Below, one piece after another: positions 4,936 to 22,750 of a stretch of DNA of 25,342 nt (the stretch's first letter is position 1; every line of letters begins with the position of its first letter). Position numbers and translations under genes: made by a program. Under the pieces are notes generated by a model, which searched no databases, was not told the origin of the DNA, and saw nothing but the letters and a program-made list of their open reading frames with translations. Source of the stretch: Spirogloea muscicola (Eukaryota > Streptophyta > Zygnematophyceae > Spirogloeales > Spirogloeaceae); assembly GCA_009602725.1 (NCBI GenBank), contig WELB01000057.1:637010-662351 (forward strand), read 5' to 3'.

Positions 4936-5165
4936 TGCGACGGTCAACCTGTCTGCAACGAGCTCAGGCGTATGCTCTGCATCAGAAAGCTGGTCGAGCC
5001 TTAGCTGCTGGCACAAGAGCTAGTCAATTGCCGTCCGGTATTCGAGCGTCAGCTAGCGACCTCTATGTGCTGACTCGTGGTTACTGAGCGGGTCAGCTTA
5101 GCAGCAGGTGACGTACATTTGTCCAATGTGCTTGCTTTGTACTTGGCCACACATGGCCTCCCCAT
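4936..5165 (+). mobile_element. Solo 3' end of retroelement family A, almost identical to the copy at 21169-21380
   Basis: From 4943 the sequence matches 21169 onward for about 175 bases with no difference seen by eye until the 3' UTR. It encodes the last 48 residues of the family A protein (TCLQRAQAYALHQKAGRALA ... SDLYVLTRGY, stop TGA at 5086-5088). The common tail follows (GAGCGGGTCAGC ... AATGTGCTTGC) with a terminal stem GGCCACACATGGCC at 5145-5158. No more upstream coding sequence is present, so it is extremely 5'-truncated. Confidence 0.85.
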
Positions 5166-5213
5166 CTCTTCATATACACGCATTTTCTTATGCGACGGTG
5201 GCAAAGTGGGCGA

Positions 5214-8133: not shown

Positions 8134-11100
8134 TTACAGAAAGCCGAAAACAAGGAGCACCAACAGCATCGCCAACCAACGCTCTCGCCGCACCAAGGCG
8201 TTTTGTGGTGCTTTATTGAGAGGCAAGTAATCTGGCATTCTACATTGCCGGCCATCGTACCACACTTCTGTTGGAAAGAGGCTCTCAGACAGCTTCATGA
8301 TTTTCCCGCCCGTTGTATTATATGTGGCAGAACCTGGTGTGCGATTGAATAGCAGTGTGAACATCACATTGCCCCCTCCCAGCAGCCAGCTATTGTAATA
8401 AGGAATGCCTTCAATCAGCAGGTTGTCTTCTGCAGTCATGTAAGTGGTTTCGGGCATCACAACTGTGTCACACATCATGCCTCCTCCATTGATTCCTCCA
8501 TTGATGGACTGGATAGATGCAGTCTTGAGTATGGTGCTTGCACTGGACTGCAGCATGCTGTGGAGGAGATGGGAAGGAGTGAAGAGGAAGCTAACCATAA
8601 GGGGGCATGTCAAATGAGGAGTTGACAGAGTAGACATCCTGAAGACTTATATTATAGAGTGGAGGGAGCTGCAGAACCATGTCCCAGTTCTTGTCGGTTA
8701 CTTGTCCCTTATTTGCTGCTGCAACCTGCATGCTTGGGCGAGAGGTCAGTATAAGCCTCCTTGAAAGTGCTTTGCATATGTCTAAAGTGGCTATTGCGGT
8801 ACCTGCAGGATCCAGCCTCTGCTGTCAGTAGGCTGGGGTATATTCATGTGAATAGTTGTGCCACAGTTGTCATCACACCTCTGCCACCACGTCAAAGTCA
8901 CCCTTCCAACATTAGTATGCGCAGTGAACATCAGGAGATCTTGCAAGCTGCACACCATCTTTCAATTTTTCAAGCATGCTTGACTAATTGAGCAAGTGGA
9001 GACTGATTCGGACAAACAGCTTCTTCCAGTCAGAATGCTCAAATTTGGGTTGTCATGTCAATTGTCATGTCAAACACCAAGTGACCTACCCCTGTTTTGC
9101 TGCCAACCACTTGGAAGCCACCCAGATCTTTCCCAAGAAGTAGCAGTGCTGCAGGATTGGGCTTTGCTGGAGCTGCAATGTCGCAGCTGTTCGTATAAAT
9201 AAGAGTGCTGTCACACTTGCAGGCACAGGAAGTGCAAGGGGACATTGTCTTATTCCAGTATCCTGTCATGATAAGCGGCAGGAAGGTGATTGAGAATTGA
9301 GCTCTTGCAATCGAACGAGTACAACATGGCATGTCTTATGCAATATCAGAGGCAGCGGGGCTCCATCGATGGGCAGATGGCAGAAAAGGTGCAAGGTGGT
9401 CATAAGCTAAACAAGTATTGCTCATAGCAGACAAGCATTCCATTACTGGTGCCCTGACACAGTGTAAGAGTACCAGAGATAGAGACACAGCAGGAGAAGT
9501 TGGCAAGTGCAGCTCTTGTCTGGCCACATTCCATTGCATAGGAGGCTGCTCGAGTGAGGGTTAACAAACGTGTCAGGCATGTACAAGAGATTTCTGAAGA
9601 TGAAGCAGAAGAAGGATTGACAAGGTCTTATTTGCCAAGTACCTTTGGCTGGCACCATTTGGCGTGCAGATTGGCTCGAGGAAGGAAAGCTGTTGACCTG
9701 AGCATTCCGTTCTGGTGGATCACAGTCATAGCCTGGAATACTGAGTGAAAAGTTGGCAGGAAACAACAAGTTGTCTGCTCCCCAGAAACGACGACCTCGT
9801 CTCTGTTGCACACACAGGAGCTTTATATTATTAACAGATGCTGAAGAAATTTGTCGAGAGTGCTCTGCGGGCTAATGCATTCTGTGACCTGAAGGAAGCA
9901 TCAAGTGACTTTAGACTTTGGAGGAGAGACCATGGTCATCGTGAAATTGGTCCTGCTTCCTGCTACATCATAGACTGCGGCAGTCAAAGATCCGTTGAGC
10001 CTGCACATAATGAGGGGCTTCTGTATCATGAATAACGAATGGAAATCAGCTCTCACACAAGCACTGTCAGATAACTTGATGAAGGGCTAGGCATGCTGTT
10101 GTCCTCCATAAAGCGAATAGAAGAAGCTTACGGGCTATTGTCAACAACTGTAGGTGCAGGATCACAAGAGTAGGCATGCTTAAAAGTTGGCTTATCGTGG
10201 CAGGCTGCACAATTGTCGCAATCTGGACAAGCAAACGAAGAGCAACTAAGCTTCAACCAAGGGCAGCTTATAAAATATTAGCGAGCTCTACATCGTCTTC
10301 ACAGCGTTTGGAAGGAGACCATCACCTCCGTATGTCAGAGTTTGGCAATCTTGACAGTCCAAGAGCACTCTGTGGTAGTAGGAGTCATGGGTATGCTGGT
10401 CATGGCGTGATTGTCCAACGATTTCACGGACAAGCAAGAAATTTGGCCTGTATCTATAGAGTGCACACTGGCCAAAACCCTAACTTTCAACACACCAAGA
10501 AAGCATGAACACTTGTAGACACTCACTCGTCCATCTGCCACACCCACTGCAGTGCCCAACCGGGATTCATGGAGATATTTGTATACTGCTGCAGATTGTC
10601 TATCCGGACAAAGACCTGGCAACCAGTCGATGTAAGTGGAAAAATATGAGTGTGACAGTCAACAACATCGTTGGCCCTCATAGGCACTCAATGTCCTTGA
10701 CATTCTTGTATGTAGTCCATTGAATGAGCTGTTGCAGCAACAATGAACAGGTCAGTCTGTCGCCAGGACAAGTTCTGAATGGTTGGACTCATCGCAAATG
10801 AACTGCTCACTTCGTAGTTGTAGTAGTCCGACTTGATGACATCCCAAAAGACGGCCACATCATGATAATCTGCTGATGGTGGCAACGTGTTCTCTGATCC
10901 TGCACATGACATGCTTCATAGCTTGAAGTACTTGCTTGCAGAGTGCTCTGGGCAGGACAGATCATAATTATATAAATTTATCGATGGACAGATCAGATCA
11001 AGAAGTACCGAGCCTATTACCGGCCGAAGTAGGCCCTGATGCACCACCGTTGTAGGTGCAGCATTGACGGAGAGTGTTTGTGGCTGTTCACCAAACACAT

Positions 11101-12586
11101 AGAACGAAATCACAAAGTGCCAAGATGCCTACATAGCAATCTAGTTTCAGTTGCTTCCATGGCCATTGTCTTGATTGCGATGCAGTGTGGGCTTTTCCGA
11201 GCTGGTCACCACGCAGTATCAGCACTTGCCAGGTGGCGGCAGGATGTCAGAAGGCTTGCAGGAAAACCCATCAGAAATCAGCTCAAAGCCGTTGGGTAGG
11301 GCCTGCTGAGATATTTTTGCGCCAATCTCTGTACCGGATAACTTGATGGTGTGACTATAGCTGGAGAGTTGGCCTGCTGCAGCATATGCTGTTGGCAGGA
11401 CTTGCAATCCCGGGGGATTTTCAAGGAGGAGGTTGTTTCCTGCAGAGGTGGCATCACCAAGGACATTGACCTAGTATGTTAACGTTGGCCACGTGAATCC
11501 ATGCCTCAGTCAATGCCTACTGTGAGTAGGTTGATTCTCAAAGCATGTAGACGGCTGAATCCTTGTAGTCTAGTGACGTGCTTCAATTGGTCGGTCAGCT
11601 TGCATCCTCCGCGGATGCAAGCAGGCGCACAGAGTTGACAATATAGCTACGATAGAGTCTATGTGGACCAAGATAGCGAGACGGGAGCTAGTTACAGAGG
11701 TGATGTATGTATAGGAGGAGAATAAGAGATGACCGAGACAGCACAAAGCGTCTCAATATGCATTACAGGAACAATTTGCTAGGTCATGCAGATTGTAACC
11801 TGCCAACGGAAGTGCTGCTGCAGGAGGTAGCGACACGCCCGACACCATGGTGATAACCTCATTGTTCTTGAAGTCAATCTCAAGCTGCCACTGATGCAGG
11901 TTGGTCCTTCCTATGTTGTACATCACGGCTGTGGCATTGAATTGGTATGCAGCAGCATCTGGATACATGATCCGACGAAGCGACCACACAGTGTAGTCTA
12001 TAAGTATGCCATTGCAAGAGGGAAGTCGGAGAAGACGGGTGTTTGGTGAGACAGGTTGACTGCTGTGAAGTCCGTGGGAGTACACATGAGCCTTGCGTTT
12101 TGGTGGAGCTGGTCCAGGAGCACCGACTGGTGTCATTGATGGACTTCTTGGAGCTGGTCCAGGAGCACCAACTGGTGTCGTTGATAGACCACTTGGAGCT
12201 GGTCCAGGAGCATCTTCTGTGGTGGACATTCCCGGAGTTTCACATGCGGAACAGCTTCCAAGAGCACCATCCACATCTGGCGATATAGAATTACCATCTG
12301 CGAGCAGCCGCAGAGCAGCACGTGCAGACAGTATAAGGTTTTGCAGACGTGCCAGTCTTTCGTAAGCCCCCTTCATGCAGACGTAGGCTGATATCGTCAC
12401 TCAGCAAATGGGCTCATGTGACCAGCAGGACAGAGTCACTATGATGTAAGCCTCTTGCATTTGCACGGGCAGTGGAATAATACCTGATGGTGCTGCTGCC
12501 AAGTGTACTTGGCTAGCAACAAGCTCAAGATAGAAGGATGTAATGATGGCAGCCGCCAGCAAGCTTGGGAGCAGTCGTATATGCAT
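8134..12586 (-). CDS. COBL: COBRA-like GPI-anchored extracellular protein (COBL7/COBL10-like), about 14 exons
   Basis: Exons fixed by phase and family match: 12586-12484, 12387-11800, 11439-11230, 10899-10811, 10615-10527, 10447-10326, 10222-10132. Approximate: 10000-9905, 9802-9643, one near 9550-9470, 9332-9112, 8947-8803, 8725-8596, about 8570-8134. It starts with a signal peptide (MHIRLLPSLLAAAIITSFYL). An Ala/Pro/Thr linker follows, then an N-terminal domain (CNGILIDYTVWSL ... WQLEIDFKNNEV). The COBRA domain has DVAVFWDVIKSDYYNYE, VRIDNLQQYTN with PGWALQWVW, APTVVDNSP, a Cys cluster (PCTSCACKC), RCDDNCG, and a last block PTEVWYDGRQCRMPDYLPL. The C-terminus is basic then hydrophobic (RRERW, LAMLLVLLVFGFL, stop), a typical GPI signal. 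In plants COBRA proteins act at the cell surface in cellulose and wall organisation; that role here is inferred. Product is roughly 800 residues. The conserved CC pairs of plant COBL are partly absent or in unmodelled exons. Confidence 0.88.
10900..11229 (-). other. COBRA-like intron 3, probable GC-AG intron
   Basis: The reading phase (one base carried, completing Gly in the next exon) and family alignment require the donor CCACCTG|GCAAGTGC rather than a GT. The GC donor is followed by the AAGT expected of GC-AG introns, and the acceptor is TGTGCAG at 10900. Confidence 0.55.
12105..12220 (-). repeat. 45-base tandem repeat coding an Ala/Pro/Thr linker in the COBRA-like protein
   Basis: GGAGCTGGTCCAGGAGCA recurs at 12105, 12150 and 12195, exactly 45 bases (15 codons) apart. 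On the minus strand it encodes three copies of a unit with APGPAP and (T/M)TPVG. Ala-Pro and Thr-Pro runs of this kind are substrates for proline hydroxylation and arabinogalactan-type glycosylation in the plant lineage (family knowledge), which suits a wall-facing linker between signal peptide and first domain. Confidence 0.85.
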
Positions 12587-15377: not shown

Positions 15378-16656
15378 ATGGCCGACGACTACTACACTGA
15401 GAGGAAGGCCGAGGTGGTGGCGAAGCTGCTGGAGGCCAAGAAGAAGAGTGGCAAGACATTCGAGGAGATCTCTCAGGAGGTGGGGCTCACCAACTGCTAC
15501 ACCGTGCAGCTTTTCTTCCGGCAGGTGCGTGCCCGTCGTATAGCAGGTCTGTGATGCAATCAATCCTTCTGCGCATATGTCCCTCCTAGTTCTTCATTCT
15601 AAGTTCCCTGCCCTTCTGGTGTCATGACATTCTTCTACCTCCACTCCTTGGGATCCTCAGCGTGGCATGCCCTTAGCCAGGAGAAGCCGGAGCTTTGCTG
15701 ACAATGATCAAGCTTGTCCGCACTATGAAGATCTTGGCTTGGCGATGACTTCTTGTACAGGCTCAGCTTAAGAAGGACACTGCAACATTGCTGAAGAAGG
15801 CTGTTCCAGACCTCGACGATGAGGTGCTGAAGGAGATGCAGGAGCCTCCATTTCGCTCCTATGATGAAGAGATACTGCAGGAGCCGAATGTTTACAGGTG
15901 GAGGCTGCTGGCACCTGCAGTGACAGTTATCTTGTGCATTCATAAAACTGGTCTTGGATAAGATATAACACAGCCTGTCTTTCCCGTCTTCCCCAATGTA
16001 TTGATTGATGGCCAGATTGCCGGTCAGTCTTTTGCTTGCTCGACAAGTTCGTGAAAATCTCGGACTCCCTCTTCATACTAGACATGATCCCAGCGCTTGC
16101 TAAAGTTGCTCAGACTCTATTCTGGTGCCAGGATCCATGAGGCTGTGATGCACTATGGAAGGACGTTCACTGTTCTCCTCCAAGAGAAGTTTGGAGATGG
16201 CATGTATGCCCAGACAGCAATTGCCCTTGCTCAGCCCTCAGTGTGCATGTGATTGCCTGAATCGTTCCTAGATTTAGAGAAGACTACATAGTGTTTCAGA
16301 ATGCGGTTATGATATCAGCCTGCCGCAGCTAAGATTTGCTCAATAAGAGTGCATGCATGGCACCAGTGAGGAAGTAGTAGGGCTGGCAAATTTTCTGGGG
16401 GCTCTTAGCTGTTCAAGCTTAGGAAGTGACTTTGACTCGGCAGGATTGTGTCAAGTGCCGGCTGCCAAAAATTGGGGAGTGATATACGTCTACAATGCCT
16501 CTTCATGTGAACAGCATGTCTGCTATAGACTTCTTCTGTACCATGGACAAAATTAAGGGCAAGCACGGTGAGGACAGGTGCCTCATTTCATTCAACGGGA
16601 AATTCCTGCCCCATACTGAACAGGTGATGATCTTTCCTCAAGGTCTCAAGCTTTGA
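15378..16656 (+). CDS. CYN: Cyanase (cyanate hydratase/lyase), four exons
   Basis: Exons 15378-15524, 15761-15897, 16132-16203, 16515-16656; phases agree and give 165 residues, the normal family length. The N-terminal helical domain reads [20 protein letters not shown] and [11 protein letters not shown]. The catalytic domain reads [46 protein letters not shown] and [11 protein letters not shown]. The catalytic Arg and Glu (NVYR-IHE) and the Ser (GIMSAID) of the E. coli enzyme are conserved. Cyanase forms a decamer and converts cyanate plus bicarbonate to ammonia and CO2 via carbamate. The frame is open 92 codons upstream, but the ATG at 15378 (GGCCATGG) is its only ATG, so no cleavable targeting peptide is needed to explain the model. 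The final ten residues ([10 protein letters not shown]) may be a local tail read past an unused splice site. Confidence 0.95.
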
Positions 16657-17529: not shown

Positions 17530-20376
17530 TCAAGCAAAAGCAGTTCTGCTTCCTCTCCTGCCTTGCTTGTCATAAGCAAGGCTGAATTTGTCCACCATCT
17601 CATTCATAATACTGCAGTCCACATTCCATGGATTAGCCAGCACTGAGATTGACAACTGATCTACAGCCTTCAATCAACGGGGACCCTATCTACTGCTTGT
17701 GGTGACATGATCAAACATAGCAGATTTTGCTATATTAATGCCATTGCTGGGTATGCTATCCAAACACGATGACATCAGATTGACATGCCCACGTCTGTGT
17801 CGTGATGAAGCAGTCAGTGGCCTACCTTGTAGTTTTGGTCATGCTTGCCAAGTATGTCATCAGCAATGTGTCATTGTACTCCTGCAATCAACAACAAGTG
17901 CATGCATACTGGCAAAATGAGGCCAGACAGAAGATCGACTGATCCAGTACACATGTACAACATGTTCGAGTCACAACGCGCTGCATGACACGCACCAGCT
18001 TGAGGGCTTTCTAAGATCTGCAAGCTGATGCTTGCTATTCATACCGTAAGGAAGTCGTCTTGGAACTGTGAAGAATCAATAGCAGGTAGCTTCTGAACCA
18101 GGCTGGCAATCTGCCTCAGCAATGACCGCTGATGGGGCACGTCCCCTGCAGGTATATGCACTTCGGACTCAGTTACAGAGGTATGTGCACTGGACAAACC
18201 ATTATCGTGCTAATTCAGATCAATGCCATCACAAGAGTTGCACATACGTGTTTACCTTTCTGCACTGTGCTAAGAAAGGTGTGCAGCACTCGTATGCGGC
18301 TGCTAAGCATTTTGATGGCGCTGTGCATGCCCGTGAGGTGAGCAGCAACTGGCAAAGCCACGTCAACAAAAGCGTTAGGCACTCAAGGTGTAATGTGACA
18401 CTCTGTTGTTGGAGCACCTAACCACTATACTGAGCTAGTGATGAGTAGTCTGATGCAGGCTCTTAGATGCAAGATGGTTTGGCGCATCGCAAAGTCGGTA
18501 TCTTGATTCATACGCTGAGTGGCTGCTGAACTCCCGTCTGAGGGCTTGATGTGTGCCACGTGATCAACAGATATTCTCTCAGCCTCCACAGTCTGCTTAA
18601 ACAGATCGATCAGCAACCAGAGTCAACACTCTGCAACATCAAGCTTGTCCAGCTCCAGAATCTTGGTGGGCTGCTCCAGGCTACAAGAACAATCTTGATC
18701 AGCAGGGAAGTGTGAGATATATAGCAGGTAGAGGTTCTCAACATGGACGACCTAAATGTGGCAGGAAAAAGACTTGCACATGATCCAATGCGTCTTCAAG
18801 GATATACCTCTATGGTGTAGCTGGACTTCACAAAAATCAGAGAAGGCACGCCTTCAATAACGTGAAGCTCTGCATTTGCAGACAGGCAAGAGATGACTAG
18901 AATCAGAAAAGCTCAAAAAGTGAGACATGTCTATAAGGTAGTGCTGAGCAAGAGAGTGAGATGGTAACAGCGGATCCATGCACATCCTACACTTATCATG
19001 TTCCTCTCGGAGTGCCCCAACGCCATGAGGCAGTGGCAATTGAGATATCAAACTTCTAAGGACTTCAATATTTCCCCTATGTAAGATTGTTGCAGGGCGG
19101 CAAAGTATGGCTGCCCGGCGCTGGGAAGGGGACGCTCAGCAGCGGATGCAGCTGGATTTCACATCCCCTCAAAAAGAAGGTGTCCAATGTACGGTTATTA
19201 ACCCCCTGAATTTGAATGTTCAGACCAAAACATTGTGCAGGAATGCCGAAGCAGACAACAGCAGTAGCCAAGCCCCCATTCAACGACCTGACCCAGCCTT
19301 GTAATTTGGGCCCCAGGTCCAAGGACATCCTCAAGGACTCAGAGAGAGCTGACCCAGACTCGTCCCAATCCCACAGGTACTAGGACAGGCTGAGGGGCAG
19401 GTCTGTACCGCTCTCGTAGATGCTGATCGGCAAGTCCTTTTGGCCGTGGGTGATGGCAGGGTTGAGGAGCACGTAGATGGGGCTCTCGTTGATGTCCATC
19501 AGCTGTGCGCGACCAGCAGCCACTGTAAGCCCGTCGAATTCTGGCAGGCCAATCAGTGCCATTTGAGTGGTCTGCTGCCACTGTGGTCTGCTCGAGTTTG
19601 CTACTTTCTCCTACTTTCTCGCGAGCTATCTTGGACAAGGGGCGATGATGGACAAGGGGAAGCTTTAAGGGCAGGGCTGTTGCTAAGGGCTTCGGGAACA
19701 TACGTGGCTAGATCTCAACCCGAAAAGCTCAAGCTCTTAGGCGAGGATTGTCCATTGCTGGCCAAGAGAGGGCGCAGCGCAGACACTGACTGGCGTGGGG
19801 CAGCTGCAAGCCTCACCGCACGGTGGACCTGCATGTCAGCATCCTCGACGCTGGTGCCGGTGGAGTACCAGCCCAGCACGTCGTACTTGGGGAACACCTT
19901 CTTGTCTGCAAGCTCTCACACCTCGCGCTCGTCAGTAGGACGTGGGCTCCAGTCCACCTTGACGACCCCAGCAAAGGCGACGCTGGCCCCAGGCAGCGGA
20001 GTGAGGCTCGGGCATCGACAGACGCCATGGTCGGGCCCCTCGAGCCTTGGCAGCGAGAGCGGCTCAGTGGGTACGACGCACACTGCTCGATCTTGGTGTC
20101 GAGGAAGTCGCGGGCGAGCACGACGGCGCCGCTGGCGGCGTCGCGCTCGTGCTTGAGCTCGAACGAGTTGAAGATCTCGACGTGCCGCCCGGACTGGGCG
20201 CCCAGCACGCAGCCCAGGACGCGCGGCGGCGCGCCGGCGGCGGCGGAGGACGACGACGACGAGGACGCGCCGCCGCCGTCGCCGGCCTGCGCGCGCGTCC
20301 GCGTGAAGTGGTCGGAGATGTTGAGGAGCACCAGCGGGTGCAGCTTGAAGGTCAGCCCGCTTGCGCCGCCCGCCAT
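17530..20376 (-). CDS. CSN6: COP9 signalosome subunit 6 (MPN- protein), nine exons
   Basis: Exons (5' to 3'): 20376-20082, 19905-19817, 19502-19409, 18869-18808, 18592-18514, 18348-18256, 18145-18045, 17881-17826, 17611-17530. All phases agree, giving 316 residues, matching plant CSN6. The MPN domain shows LTFKLHPLVLLNISDHFTR, RHVEIFNSFEL, YKKVFPKYDVLGWYSTG, LMDINESPIYVLLNP and KDLPISIYE. The C-terminal part shows VEAERISVDHVAH, LAAHLTGMHSAIKMLSSRI and SLLRQIASLVQKLP, ending RRGSRTAFA. No HxH metal motif is present, as expected for CSN6, which pairs with catalytic CSN5 in the complex that removes NEDD8 from cullins. A Ser/Ala-rich insert (SSSSSSSAAAG) in exon 1 is lineage-specific. The start matches plant N-termini (M-(A)-x-GLTFKLHP). 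A retroelement copy lies 320 bases upstream. Confidence 0.96.
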
Positions 20377-20695
20377 GGCCGCCGCCGGGGCGGCGGCCTC
20401 GGCGGTGGAGGCCGTGCCCGGGGGGAATGCCAAAGGCGAGGAAGGTGGGAATGCCGAAGGAGGCCCCTTAAACCCCGCATGATGAATGGACTCGGGAACA
20501 CCGCACACATGGAGCCCGCTAAACCCCGGCTCTGCCAGGGGCCCCACCTGTAAAGAATGCTGTGGATCGCCAAGCCCGGGCTGCCGGCGGCGCAAGGAAA
20601 AGCGGGGAGGCATTGGAATGGGGGCTGCAACGGTAAAATTGAGCAACGGATACTGCAGGAGCAAGGGTCCAGGGGTCTGAGGTTGGGTGAAGAAC
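20377..20695 (-). promoter_or_regulatory. CSN6 upstream region (promoter/5' UTR by position)
   Basis: Only about 320 bases separate the CSN6 start codon from retroelement sequence. The frame stays open upstream of the CSN6 ATG and contains another ATG, but that extension is low-complexity and absent from CSN6 proteins. No core promoter motif can be identified with confidence. Confidence 0.35.
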
Positions 20696-20699
20696 GCAC

Positions 20700-21390
20700 C
20701 CCCTGAGGTGGTGGGCGTCCACAATCTCCTACGGGACGCCCTGGCGGGCTTGATGCGCGACGCCGGCTACCGCGCCATCGTTGAAGTGAGCAATGTAATG
20801 CCCATCACCACGGATTCCCAGGGAGGCCATCACCGTCGCACCCTGGACATTGTGGGTGTACAACCTGGCGGAGGCCCACGAGCTTTGGTTGATGTGGTGG
20901 TGACTGAGGCATACAAGAGTTCCGCTTCCACACACATTGCTGGCCACGCAGTGGGAGGTGCTGAGCAGAAAAAGCTCCGACACTACTCAGACTACCCCCG
21001 CAGTGACCACCTCCTCCCGGCCGCAATCGACACTTTCGGCTGCTTGGGTCCTCGCTTCCATACCCTACTCGAGAACATAGCGAGTCTGGGATATGCACGA
21101 CGCGAGGATATGCTCCCAGCCCAGATGGGTATGCCGGCAGCCTATCTGTCATTTCTGCGACGTCGAGTGTCAACCTGTCTGCAACGAGCTCAGGCGTATG
21201 CTCTGCATCAGAAAGCTGGTCGAGCCTTAGCTGCTGGCACAAGAGCTAGTCAATTGCCGTCCGGTATTCGAGCGTCAGCTAGCGACCTCTATGTGCTGAC
21301 TCGTGGTTACTGAGCGGGTCAGCTTAGCAGCAGGTGACGTACATTTGTCAATGTGCTTGCCTTTGAACTTTGCCACAAATGGCCCTCCAT
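20700..21390 (+). mobile_element. Retroelement family A, intact C-terminal ORF segment and 3' UTR
   Basis: A continuous frame from about 20700 to TGA at 21311-21313 encodes the last 200 residues of a non-LTR retroelement protein: HNLLRDALAGLMRDAGY, EVSNVMPI, HHRRTLDIVG, GPRALVDVVVTEAYKS, LPAAIDTFGCLGPRF, and the end SDLYVLTRGY. The spaced E...D...DVVVTEAY pattern resembles a PD-(D/E)xK restriction-like endonuclease core, the nuclease found C-terminal to reverse transcriptase in R2/NeSL-type elements; this assignment is inferred. The reverse transcriptase itself is missing, so the copy is 5'-truncated. The 3' UTR carries AATGTGCTTGCCTTTGAACT and the stem TGCCACAAATGGCC (21371-21384). Confidence 0.85.
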
Positions 21391-21414
21391 CTTTTTAACA
21401 CACGCATTCGTCCA

Positions 21415-21604: not shown

Positions 21605-22750
21605 TTAGTACCCACGGGTGAGCACAAACAAATCTGACAAGCTAACTTGGGGAGCTGGAGCGCCGCCACGAAAGCCGGAGGCCTGACTTAGAGCGCGCCC
21701 TGCACGTTGATGAAGAGCCAATGCTTGCGAGCGCTGCAAACTAAGCGAGAGCCGCATTCTATAATATGCAACTAAGGCCTGCGGAATGCTGGAGTGGCCC
21801 AAGCTGCCCCCCCGACTTCGACGACGCGCATCAACCAGCCGGGCCAGATGCTGGATCAGGGAGGACCATTTCACGCCGTAGCCTCCATAGATATCCATGG
21901 CACACGGGTAAAGATGGTCCCCTCGAGGATGATCATGGTAGTGCCGCTCCTTCTTGCGCTCCGCGCTGGACGTGGCCCAGCCAGACACGGTTGACGTTGG
22001 TGCGCCAGCCTTGTATGCGTCGATCAGTACCACGTCCAAGAGCAGACGAGGCCCACCGCCCCGCGGGGTAGCGACCACGTCCAGACGCCGCACGTATGGC
22101 TTGCCGCGCCTTGAGGAGATTGGCATGATCCCAGACACCTCCATCGCCGGATGATATCCCGCCTCTCGCACAATGCCAAACATGGTATCCCTTAGTAGGT
22201 CGTGGGAGGCAATGCGCTCACCCCCCTCAACACACCTCAGCATGTGCGAAGCTAAGGCGAGCTTGTCGTCGGCAATGTGGCCACACTCGCACTGGCGGAT
22301 GCCAGCCAAGCAAGGGGGGGGGAGGCCAAGGTGGTGGTGGAGCGCCGTGCGGAAAAGGTTGTCAGAAAGCCGAAGGGACTCGTAGATCGGCAGAGCGTTT
22401 AGCCACTCCGACGCGCCCGGGGAGCCGATTGAAAGGAGCCGGGTAAGGCCACGTCTATCGTCCTTGAGCAGTCCCTTCAAGTCGGAGGCGGCCTGCACGT
22501 CCGCAGCGTGTGTGTAGTGAGCCTGCGCTTTCCTATCGGAACAGCGTGCCCATGCCGCAAAATCTGCATGACCCTCGGCAAGTGTTGGTAGGGAGCGCGA
22601 GAGGTCATGCAGTGCTGCGGTTAGGGAAAGCTGGAAGGGCCTGGTCCCTGTTGCAACACCCGCTATAGCGGGTGCTAAAACAGCCTGGCCCCTCAGGATG
22701 AAGCGACTGGAGATGGTGGAGGCCACTTGGGGCCCAGCAACCCAGGTGAG
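21605..22750 (-). mobile_element. Retroelement family B, C-terminal ORF with CCHC motif and restriction-like endonuclease
   Basis: The minus-strand frame runs from just after a TAG (22753-22751) to the stop at 21605, about 380 residues, with no break. A helical region leads to a Cys-His motif (CECGH ... ASHMLRC, C-x1-C-x12-H-x3-C). Then comes the putative nuclease: SHDLLRDTMFGIVREAGY, MEVSGIMPI, VRRLDVVATP, GPRLLLDVVLIDAYKA, and the end QVSLSDLFVLTRGY. Order (Cys-His motif, then nuclease) is that of R2/NeSL-like elements that carry a restriction-like endonuclease after the reverse transcriptase. Family A (20700-21313) is a relative with about one-third to one-half identity by eye. No reverse transcriptase motif is visible upstream, so the copy is truncated or broken near 22750. 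Confidence 0.85.

What the first reader, a model, noticed from the sequence alone, without database searches (positions are those of the whole stretch)
8134..12586. Complete COBRA-like gene with signal peptide, glycomodule-like linker and GPI signal
Seen: a spliced minus-strand gene with a signal peptide, an N-terminal CNGxxxxYT domain, COBRA blocks (PGWALQWVW, PTVVDNSP, PCTSCACKC, RCDDNCG, the C-terminal WYDGRQCRMPDYLPL block) and a hydrophobic C-terminus after RRERW. Known: COBRA-like proteins with this two-part layout (COBL7-COBL11 type) are described mainly from land plants and their streptophyte relatives, where they organise cellulose at the wall. If the host is a chlorophyte, this places a full-length, GPI-type COBRA-like protein outside the group where its function is understood. 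The partial loss of the CC pairs suggests a divergent disulphide pattern.
Basis: partly seen in the sequence, partly recalled or inferred. Interest (0 to 1): 0.75.

Follow-up and report, generated by a model that had tools for sequence, protein, structure and literature searches.

The report
COBRA-like cell-wall gene in streptophyte alga
The window holds an intact gene for a COBRA-like protein, a membrane-tethered protein that organises cellulose in plant cell walls; its host appears to be a streptophyte, the group that includes land plants and their algal relatives, where such genes are expected, so the find is real but largely ordinary.

Summary
I built a 14-exon minus-strand model (12586..8134, 747 aa, phases consistent; 12 GT-AG introns, one GC-AG). 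The spliced protein matches Pfam COBRA (61.9 bits, E 8.9e-17) and COB_C (72 bits, E 9.3e-20), each over nearly the whole profile. Order: signal-peptide-like start, tandem APGPAP linker, COBL7-like N-terminal domain, COBRA, COB_C, GPI-like tail. The aromatic positions tested in rice BC1's cellulose-binding module are kept. A collinear homeolog keeps all 14 exons and 13 intron borders, with dN/dS 0.32.

The chlorophyte premise fails: plastid psaB, six loci with strong plant-type CesA matches and plastid ycf2 point to a streptophyte. Segments occur in three copies, fitting the triplicated zygnematophyte Spirogloea muscicola (inferred, not proven). COBRA genes are already reported from Mesotaenium (PMC10505561, passages), so this is a new member of a known kind.

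Oddities: five CxxC-spaced cysteines in an insert of the COBRA domain, loss of every CC pair but CCVS, and only two-part COBRA genes found here, by searches of limited sensitivity.

The parts
12484..12586 (-). exon 1: start codon, signal-peptide-like start MHIRLLPSLLAAAIITSFYLELVAS
   Evidence: hydrophobic 11-mers at residues 5-8; homeolog exon 95.1% identical
11800..12297 (-). exon 2: APGPAP linker and first part of the COBL7-like N-terminal domain
   Evidence: homeolog 94.5% identical, lacking 45 nt of the repeat
12104..12212 (-). 45-bp tandem repeat inside exon 2 encoding APGPAP units (3 in the protein, 2 in the homeolog)
11230..11439 (-). exon 3: rest of the N-terminal domain; followed by a GC-AG intron (11229-10900)
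   Evidence: GCAAGT donor kept in the homeolog
10811..10899 (-). exon 4: start of the COBRA domain (DVIKSDYYNYE)
10527..10615 (-). exon 5: cellulose-binding block VFVRIDNLQQYTNISMNPGWALQWVWQMDE; 100% identical in the homeolog
10326..10447 (-). exon 6: COBRA domain, first part of the Cys-rich insert (CQDC)
10132..10222 (-). exon 7: CDNCAACHD..SCDPAPTVVDNSP; 100% identical in the homeolog
9931..10063 (-). exon 8: MCRLNG..NFTMTM; both ends uncertain by a few codons
9643..9802 (-). exon 9: LLFPANFSLSIPGYDCDPP
9474..9545 (-). exon 10: end of COBRA domain and CCVSIS
9090..9262 (-). exon 11: GYWNKTMSPCTSCACKC, start of COB_C
8803..8880 (-). exon 12: RCDDNCG..GWILQ (COB_C)
8596..8725 (-). exon 13: COB_C
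8134..8429 (-). exon 14: end of COB_C, spacer and GPI-type hydrophobic tail RRERWLAMLLVLLVFGFL, stop
8430..8595 (-). intron 13, open in frame with the last exon; 161 of 162 aligned bases identical in the homeolog apart from a 4-nt deletion there

Best explanation
This is a functional nuclear gene for a two-part (COBL7-type, group II) COBRA-like protein of a streptophyte, most likely the zygnematophyte Spirogloea muscicola. Inferred mechanism: the protein is secreted, decorated on its AP-rich linker, held by a GPI anchor on the outer face of the plasma membrane, and its CBM-like COBRA domain (with the extra N-terminal domain) holds newly made cellulose during wall assembly, as shown for rice BC1. 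Shown here: gene structure, domains, kept aromatic positions, homeolog and purifying selection. Inferred: anchoring, glycosylation, cellulose binding, role in the wall, species name.
For: Consistent 14-exon model. COBRA 61.9 and COB_C 72 bits over nearly full profiles. Positions Y299, W320 and W326 are invariant in the three-row alignment with recalled AtCOB and AtCOBL7 and by spacing correspond to BC1 Y46, W66, W72 (PMC3749933, passages; BC1 sequence itself not seen). N-terminal domain matches recalled COBL7 at 65.9 bits, Smith-Waterman 170 against a maximum of 58 in 500 shuffles, but not recalled COB (42 against a maximum of 50). Homeolog on C110: 14 of 14 exons without frameshift, 13 of 13 introns with the same border type, dN/dS 0.316, bootstrap 0.21-0.47. 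Host: psaB, plastid genes, CesA, three-copy segments.
Against: No transcript evidence. Only 24% identity to recalled COBL7, and Pfam scores (62, 72) well under those of the recalled Arabidopsis proteins (210-323). The five-cysteine insert and loss of CC pairs could mean an altered function. W66A had little effect in BC1, so conservation of W320 says little. Signal peptide and GPI site rest on hydropathy only. COB_C tail and linker evolve faster than the domains (dN 0.086 and 0.069 against 0.020). The Spirogloea name rests partly on recall.
Confidence: 0.88

Rival explanations
1. One reading: a full-length COBRA-like protein in a chlorophyte, outside the group where its function is understood.
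For: High GC, compact introns.
Against: psaB ranks, ycf2 and cysA-like plastid pieces, plant-type CesA matches at six loci, three-copy segments fitting a zygnematophyte.
Confidence: 0.03
2. A COBRA relative that has been repurposed: with the Cys-rich insert and lost CC pairs it no longer handles cellulose but serves as an adhesion or mucilage-organising surface protein.
For: Five CxxC-spaced cysteines (361, 364, 372, 375, 378), kept in the homeolog; one CC pair left; low identity to recalled land-plant proteins.
Against: Aromatic positions of the cellulose-binding face are kept; exon 5, which holds the PGW and WVW positions, is identical between homeologs; six CesA loci in the genome.
Confidence: 0.1
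3. A decaying duplicate (pseudogene) left after polyploidy.
For: A near-identical homeolog exists.
Against: Both copies have open frames with all splice borders kept; dN/dS 0.316 with upper bootstrap bound 0.47.
Confidence: 0.03

Closest known systems
Group II COBRA-like proteins (AtCOBL7-COBL11 type)
   Same: Extra N-terminal CNG domain, COBRA domain, CCVS, CxxCxC block, COB_C, GPI-type tail; full-length match 159 bits to recalled AtCOBL7. Two groups, AtCOB-like and AtCOBL7-like, are described in PMC10540467 (passages).
   Different: 24% identity; tandem APGPAP linker; five-cysteine insert in the COBRA domain; PGW form of the binding block as in group I; missing CC pairs.
Group I COBRA (AtCOB, rice BC1)
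   Same: COBRA and COB_C domains, PGW..WVW block, CCVS.
   Different: Group I lacks the N-terminal domain; recalled COB aligns only from residue 237 on (93 bits).
COBRA family genes of Mesotaenium endlicherianum

Membership tests
COBRA-like family | COBRA domain (PF04833) above cut-off | tested here: met
   61.9 bits, cut-off 27, profile 1-167 of 169
COBRA-like family | C-terminal domain COB_C (PF25079) above cut-off | tested here: met
   72 bits, cut-off 27, profile 1-209 of 209
COBRA-like family | CCVS motif | tested here: met
   CCVS at residue 517, homeolog 502
COBRA-like family | N-terminal signal peptide | tested here: inconclusive
   hydrophobic stretch near residues 5-18 in both homeologs, no predictor run
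COBRA-like family | GPI-anchor signal (omega site plus hydrophobic tail) | tested here: inconclusive
   hydrophobic tail with 11-mer hydropathy up to 3.14, kept in homeolog; omega site not predicted
COBRA-like family | Aromatic residues of the cellulose-binding module | tested here: met
   Y299, W320, W326 invariant in a 3-row alignment with recalled AtCOB and AtCOBL7; BC1 residue numbers from PMC3749933
COBRA-like family | Binding to crystalline cellulose | not testable with these tools
   needs a binding assay
Group II (COBL7 type) | Extra N-terminal domain homologous to that of COBL7 | tested here: met
   65.9 bits, E 3.4e-17 to a COBL7 recalled from memory; 170 against at most 58 in 500 shuffles
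Group II (COBL7 type) | Placement with COBL7-COBL11 in a tree | not tested
   no eukaryotic reference sequences available; only two recalled Arabidopsis proteins
Spirogloea muscicola as host | Streptophyte plastid and triplicated genome | tested here: inconclusive
   psaB ranks; three copies of a neighbour gene, three-copy flanks of a CesA locus; triplication of Spirogloea is recalled; published size 174 and figure 566.4 (PMC11096116, passages) against an interpolated N50 of 540 kb for 174 Mb

The most novel reading that the evidence does not exclude
In this alga two-part COBL7-type genes are the only COBRA genes, and they combine a group II N-terminal domain with a group I-like PGW binding block. 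That would mean the two-part form is the older state, with land-plant COB arising by loss of the N-terminal domain, and that algal COBRA is locked by a CxxC cluster instead of the CC pairs used in land plants.
Probability: 0.15. Interest if true: 0.5.

Novelty: new member of a known kind. Interest (0 to 1): 0.2.

Why it matters
It gives a checked gene model, with a homeolog, for a COBRA-like protein in what is probably a close algal relative of land plants. That is useful for asking when the two-part COBRA architecture and its cysteine pattern arose. It does not extend the family outside streptophytes, which PMC10037820 (passages) already gives as the range of the family.

Tried and rejected
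Rejected: (1) chlorophyte host. (2) A third COBRA locus on C15 (E 0.44): the surrounding frames carry unrelated sequence, and the local match (40% over 52 residues, E 4e-4 in an 8-kb subject) lies in another frame context with no other COBRA block. (3) A COBRA gene beside CesA on C40 (E 0.186): contains a stop, and neither homeologous flank gave the match. (4) 8595-8430 as coding; against this, it is the most conserved of the 13 introns (161 of 162 aligned bases), which I cannot explain.

Inconclusive: absence of group I COBRA. PF04833 gave 0 matches at E 0.001, but PF25079 up to E 10 gave 4 matches, all from the two known loci and below cut-off, and a recalled COB query missed even the window's own exons, so these searches would miss diverged genes. 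The third homeolog cannot be judged: contig C104 keeps the neighbouring block (window about 14.1-25 kb) and then turns into N (8,645 of 18,000 letters fetched). N-terminal domain against the protein's own COBRA+COB_C: score 51, reached by 2 of 500 shuffles, so a weak hint of internal duplication only. Relatives in prokaryote genomes: 37 stretches matched a pattern, none confirmed. No solved relative by sequence: 2 PDB hits at E 0.55 and 0.82. No structure prediction was run, since spliced proteins are not a contiguous reading of the window. Rfam found nothing in the window.

Full report
Observation. I placed exon borders by hand from splice signals, reading phase and the layout of the family, and checked them in a script: 14 exons, 2,244 nt with stop, 747 aa, 13 introns (12 GT-AG and one GC-AG at 11229-10900), all phases consistent. 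Before splicing, 3 of 8 exon frames scanned hit COBRA or COB_C below cut-off (22, 20.4 and 14.6 bits). The spliced protein scores 61.9 bits for COBRA (residues 299-506, profile 1-167 of 169) and 72 bits for COB_C (residues 516-719, profile 1-209 of 209), both over the cut-off of 27.

Anatomy. From the start: a hydrophobic leader; a linker with three APGPAP units coded by a 45-bp tandem array; a CNG domain that matches the N-terminal domain of COBL7 as I recall it (65.9 bits; Smith-Waterman 170 against a maximum of 58 in 500 shuffles) and not recalled COB (42 against a maximum of 50); the COBRA domain; CCVS and CTSCACKC; COB_C; a spacer and a 13-residue hydrophobic tail. The protein has 11 N-glycosylation sequons and 24 cysteines with one CC pair. 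An insert in the COBRA domain carries five cysteines in CxxC spacing (361, 364, 372, 375, 378), all present in the homeolog.

Homeolog. A whole-genome protein search returned 27 matches: 13 from this locus, 13 from C110:330130-333912, and one chance match on C15. The C110 copy aligns over all 14 exons (92.1-100% identity) and its 13 introns begin with GT or GC and end with AG as in the window; the only exon gap is one 45-nt linker unit. It gives 732 aa. By Nei-Gojobori dS is 0.103, dN 0.032, ratio 0.316 (bootstrap 0.21-0.47). COBRA plus COB_C are most constrained (dN 0.020); linker and tail least (0.069, 0.086). Introns differ at 196 of 2,162 aligned sites. Exons 5 and 7 are identical in the two copies. 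Intron 13 is identical at 161 of 162 aligned sites, which I cannot explain.

Host. The genome held has 153.1 Mb in 471 contigs. Plastid psaB from contig C392 scores 1627-1623 bits against four PDB chains (8htu, 9lut, 6l35, 7ksq), of which I recall 8htu, 6l35 and 7ksq as Physcomitrium; chains that I recall as angiosperm follow from 1594, and chains that I recall as Chlamydomonas and Bryopsis stand at 1519 (best 60 of 170 listed). The same contig carries psbD, psbC, a ycf2-like frame of 1,782 aa and a cysA-like piece (labels read by eye). Among 114 matches to the cellulose synthase family, six loci (C139, C40, C55, C140, C179, C13) have matches above 410 bits; five further contigs (C47, C221, C46, C214, C200) have weaker ones. 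A neighbouring exon that I read as cyanase occurs three times, on C57, C110 and C104; the window is collinear with C110 along most of its length and with C104 from about 14.1 kb on; the flank of one CesA locus is also present three times (C40, C55, C139). This fits the zygnematophyte Spirogloea muscicola, whose triplication I recall; a table in PMC11096116 (passages) gives 174 and 566.4 for it, which I take as Mb and N50 in kb, and interpolation of contig lengths seen here gives 540 kb for a 174-Mb total. The name remains an inference. The third copy of the COBRA gene would fall where C104 turns into N, so its fate is unknown.

Mechanism. BC1 of rice is GPI-anchored and binds crystalline cellulose by its N-terminal CBM; Y46 and W72 matter, W66 hardly (PMC3749933, passages). 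By alignment with recalled AtCOB and by spacing these are Y299, W326 and W320 here, all kept. COBL10 shows a role of group II proteins in pollen-tube tip walls (PMC10756762, passages). The best reading is a surface-anchored cellulose organiser. Anchoring, glycosylation and binding are inferred.

Comparison. The family is given as restricted to streptophytes (PMC10037820, passages), with two groups, AtCOB and AtCOBL7 (PMC10540467, passages). Mesotaenium COBRA genes are already reported as co-expression hubs (PMC10505561, passages; see also PMC12185132, passages). A search for COBRA with Spirogloea found 2 papers, these same two, COBRA-like with chlorophyte and cellulose found 2 (listing only), and COBRA with Penium margaritaceum found 7 (listing). 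So the gene is an expected member of a known family. What may be new is in the detail: the cysteine cluster, and the combination of a group II N-terminal domain with a PGW block. Whether this genome lacks group I COBRA cannot be settled: the searches are not sensitive enough, as shown by the recalled COB query missing the window's own exons.

Noticed in passing
window 8430-8595: Intron 13 is 161 of 162 aligned bases identical between homeologs, against about 9% divergence over all introns; recent gene conversion or a functional element are possible.
   Followed up: partly
window 15386-15532 (+): Exon read by eye as the start of a cyanase, present in three genome copies (C57, C110, C104). Pfam gave no family for the surrounding frame.
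   Followed up: partly
window 19813-20766 (-): Frame with a JAB/MPN domain (41.3 bits, E 1.5e-10), which resembles COP9 signalosome subunit 6 by recall.
   Followed up: no
window 21605-22750 (-) and 20681-21313 (+): Two related-looking frames (RRLDVV..GGGPR..DVV) that look like remnants of a mobile element; no Pfam family.
   Followed up: no
window 4943-5188 and 20995-21408: Dispersed repeat: both match the same stretch of contig C104 at up to 98.7% identity.
   Followed up: no
window 10326-10222 region, exons 6-7: Five CxxC-spaced cysteines inserted in the COBRA domain, present in both homeologs; possibly an alternative disulphide or metal site.
   Followed up: partly
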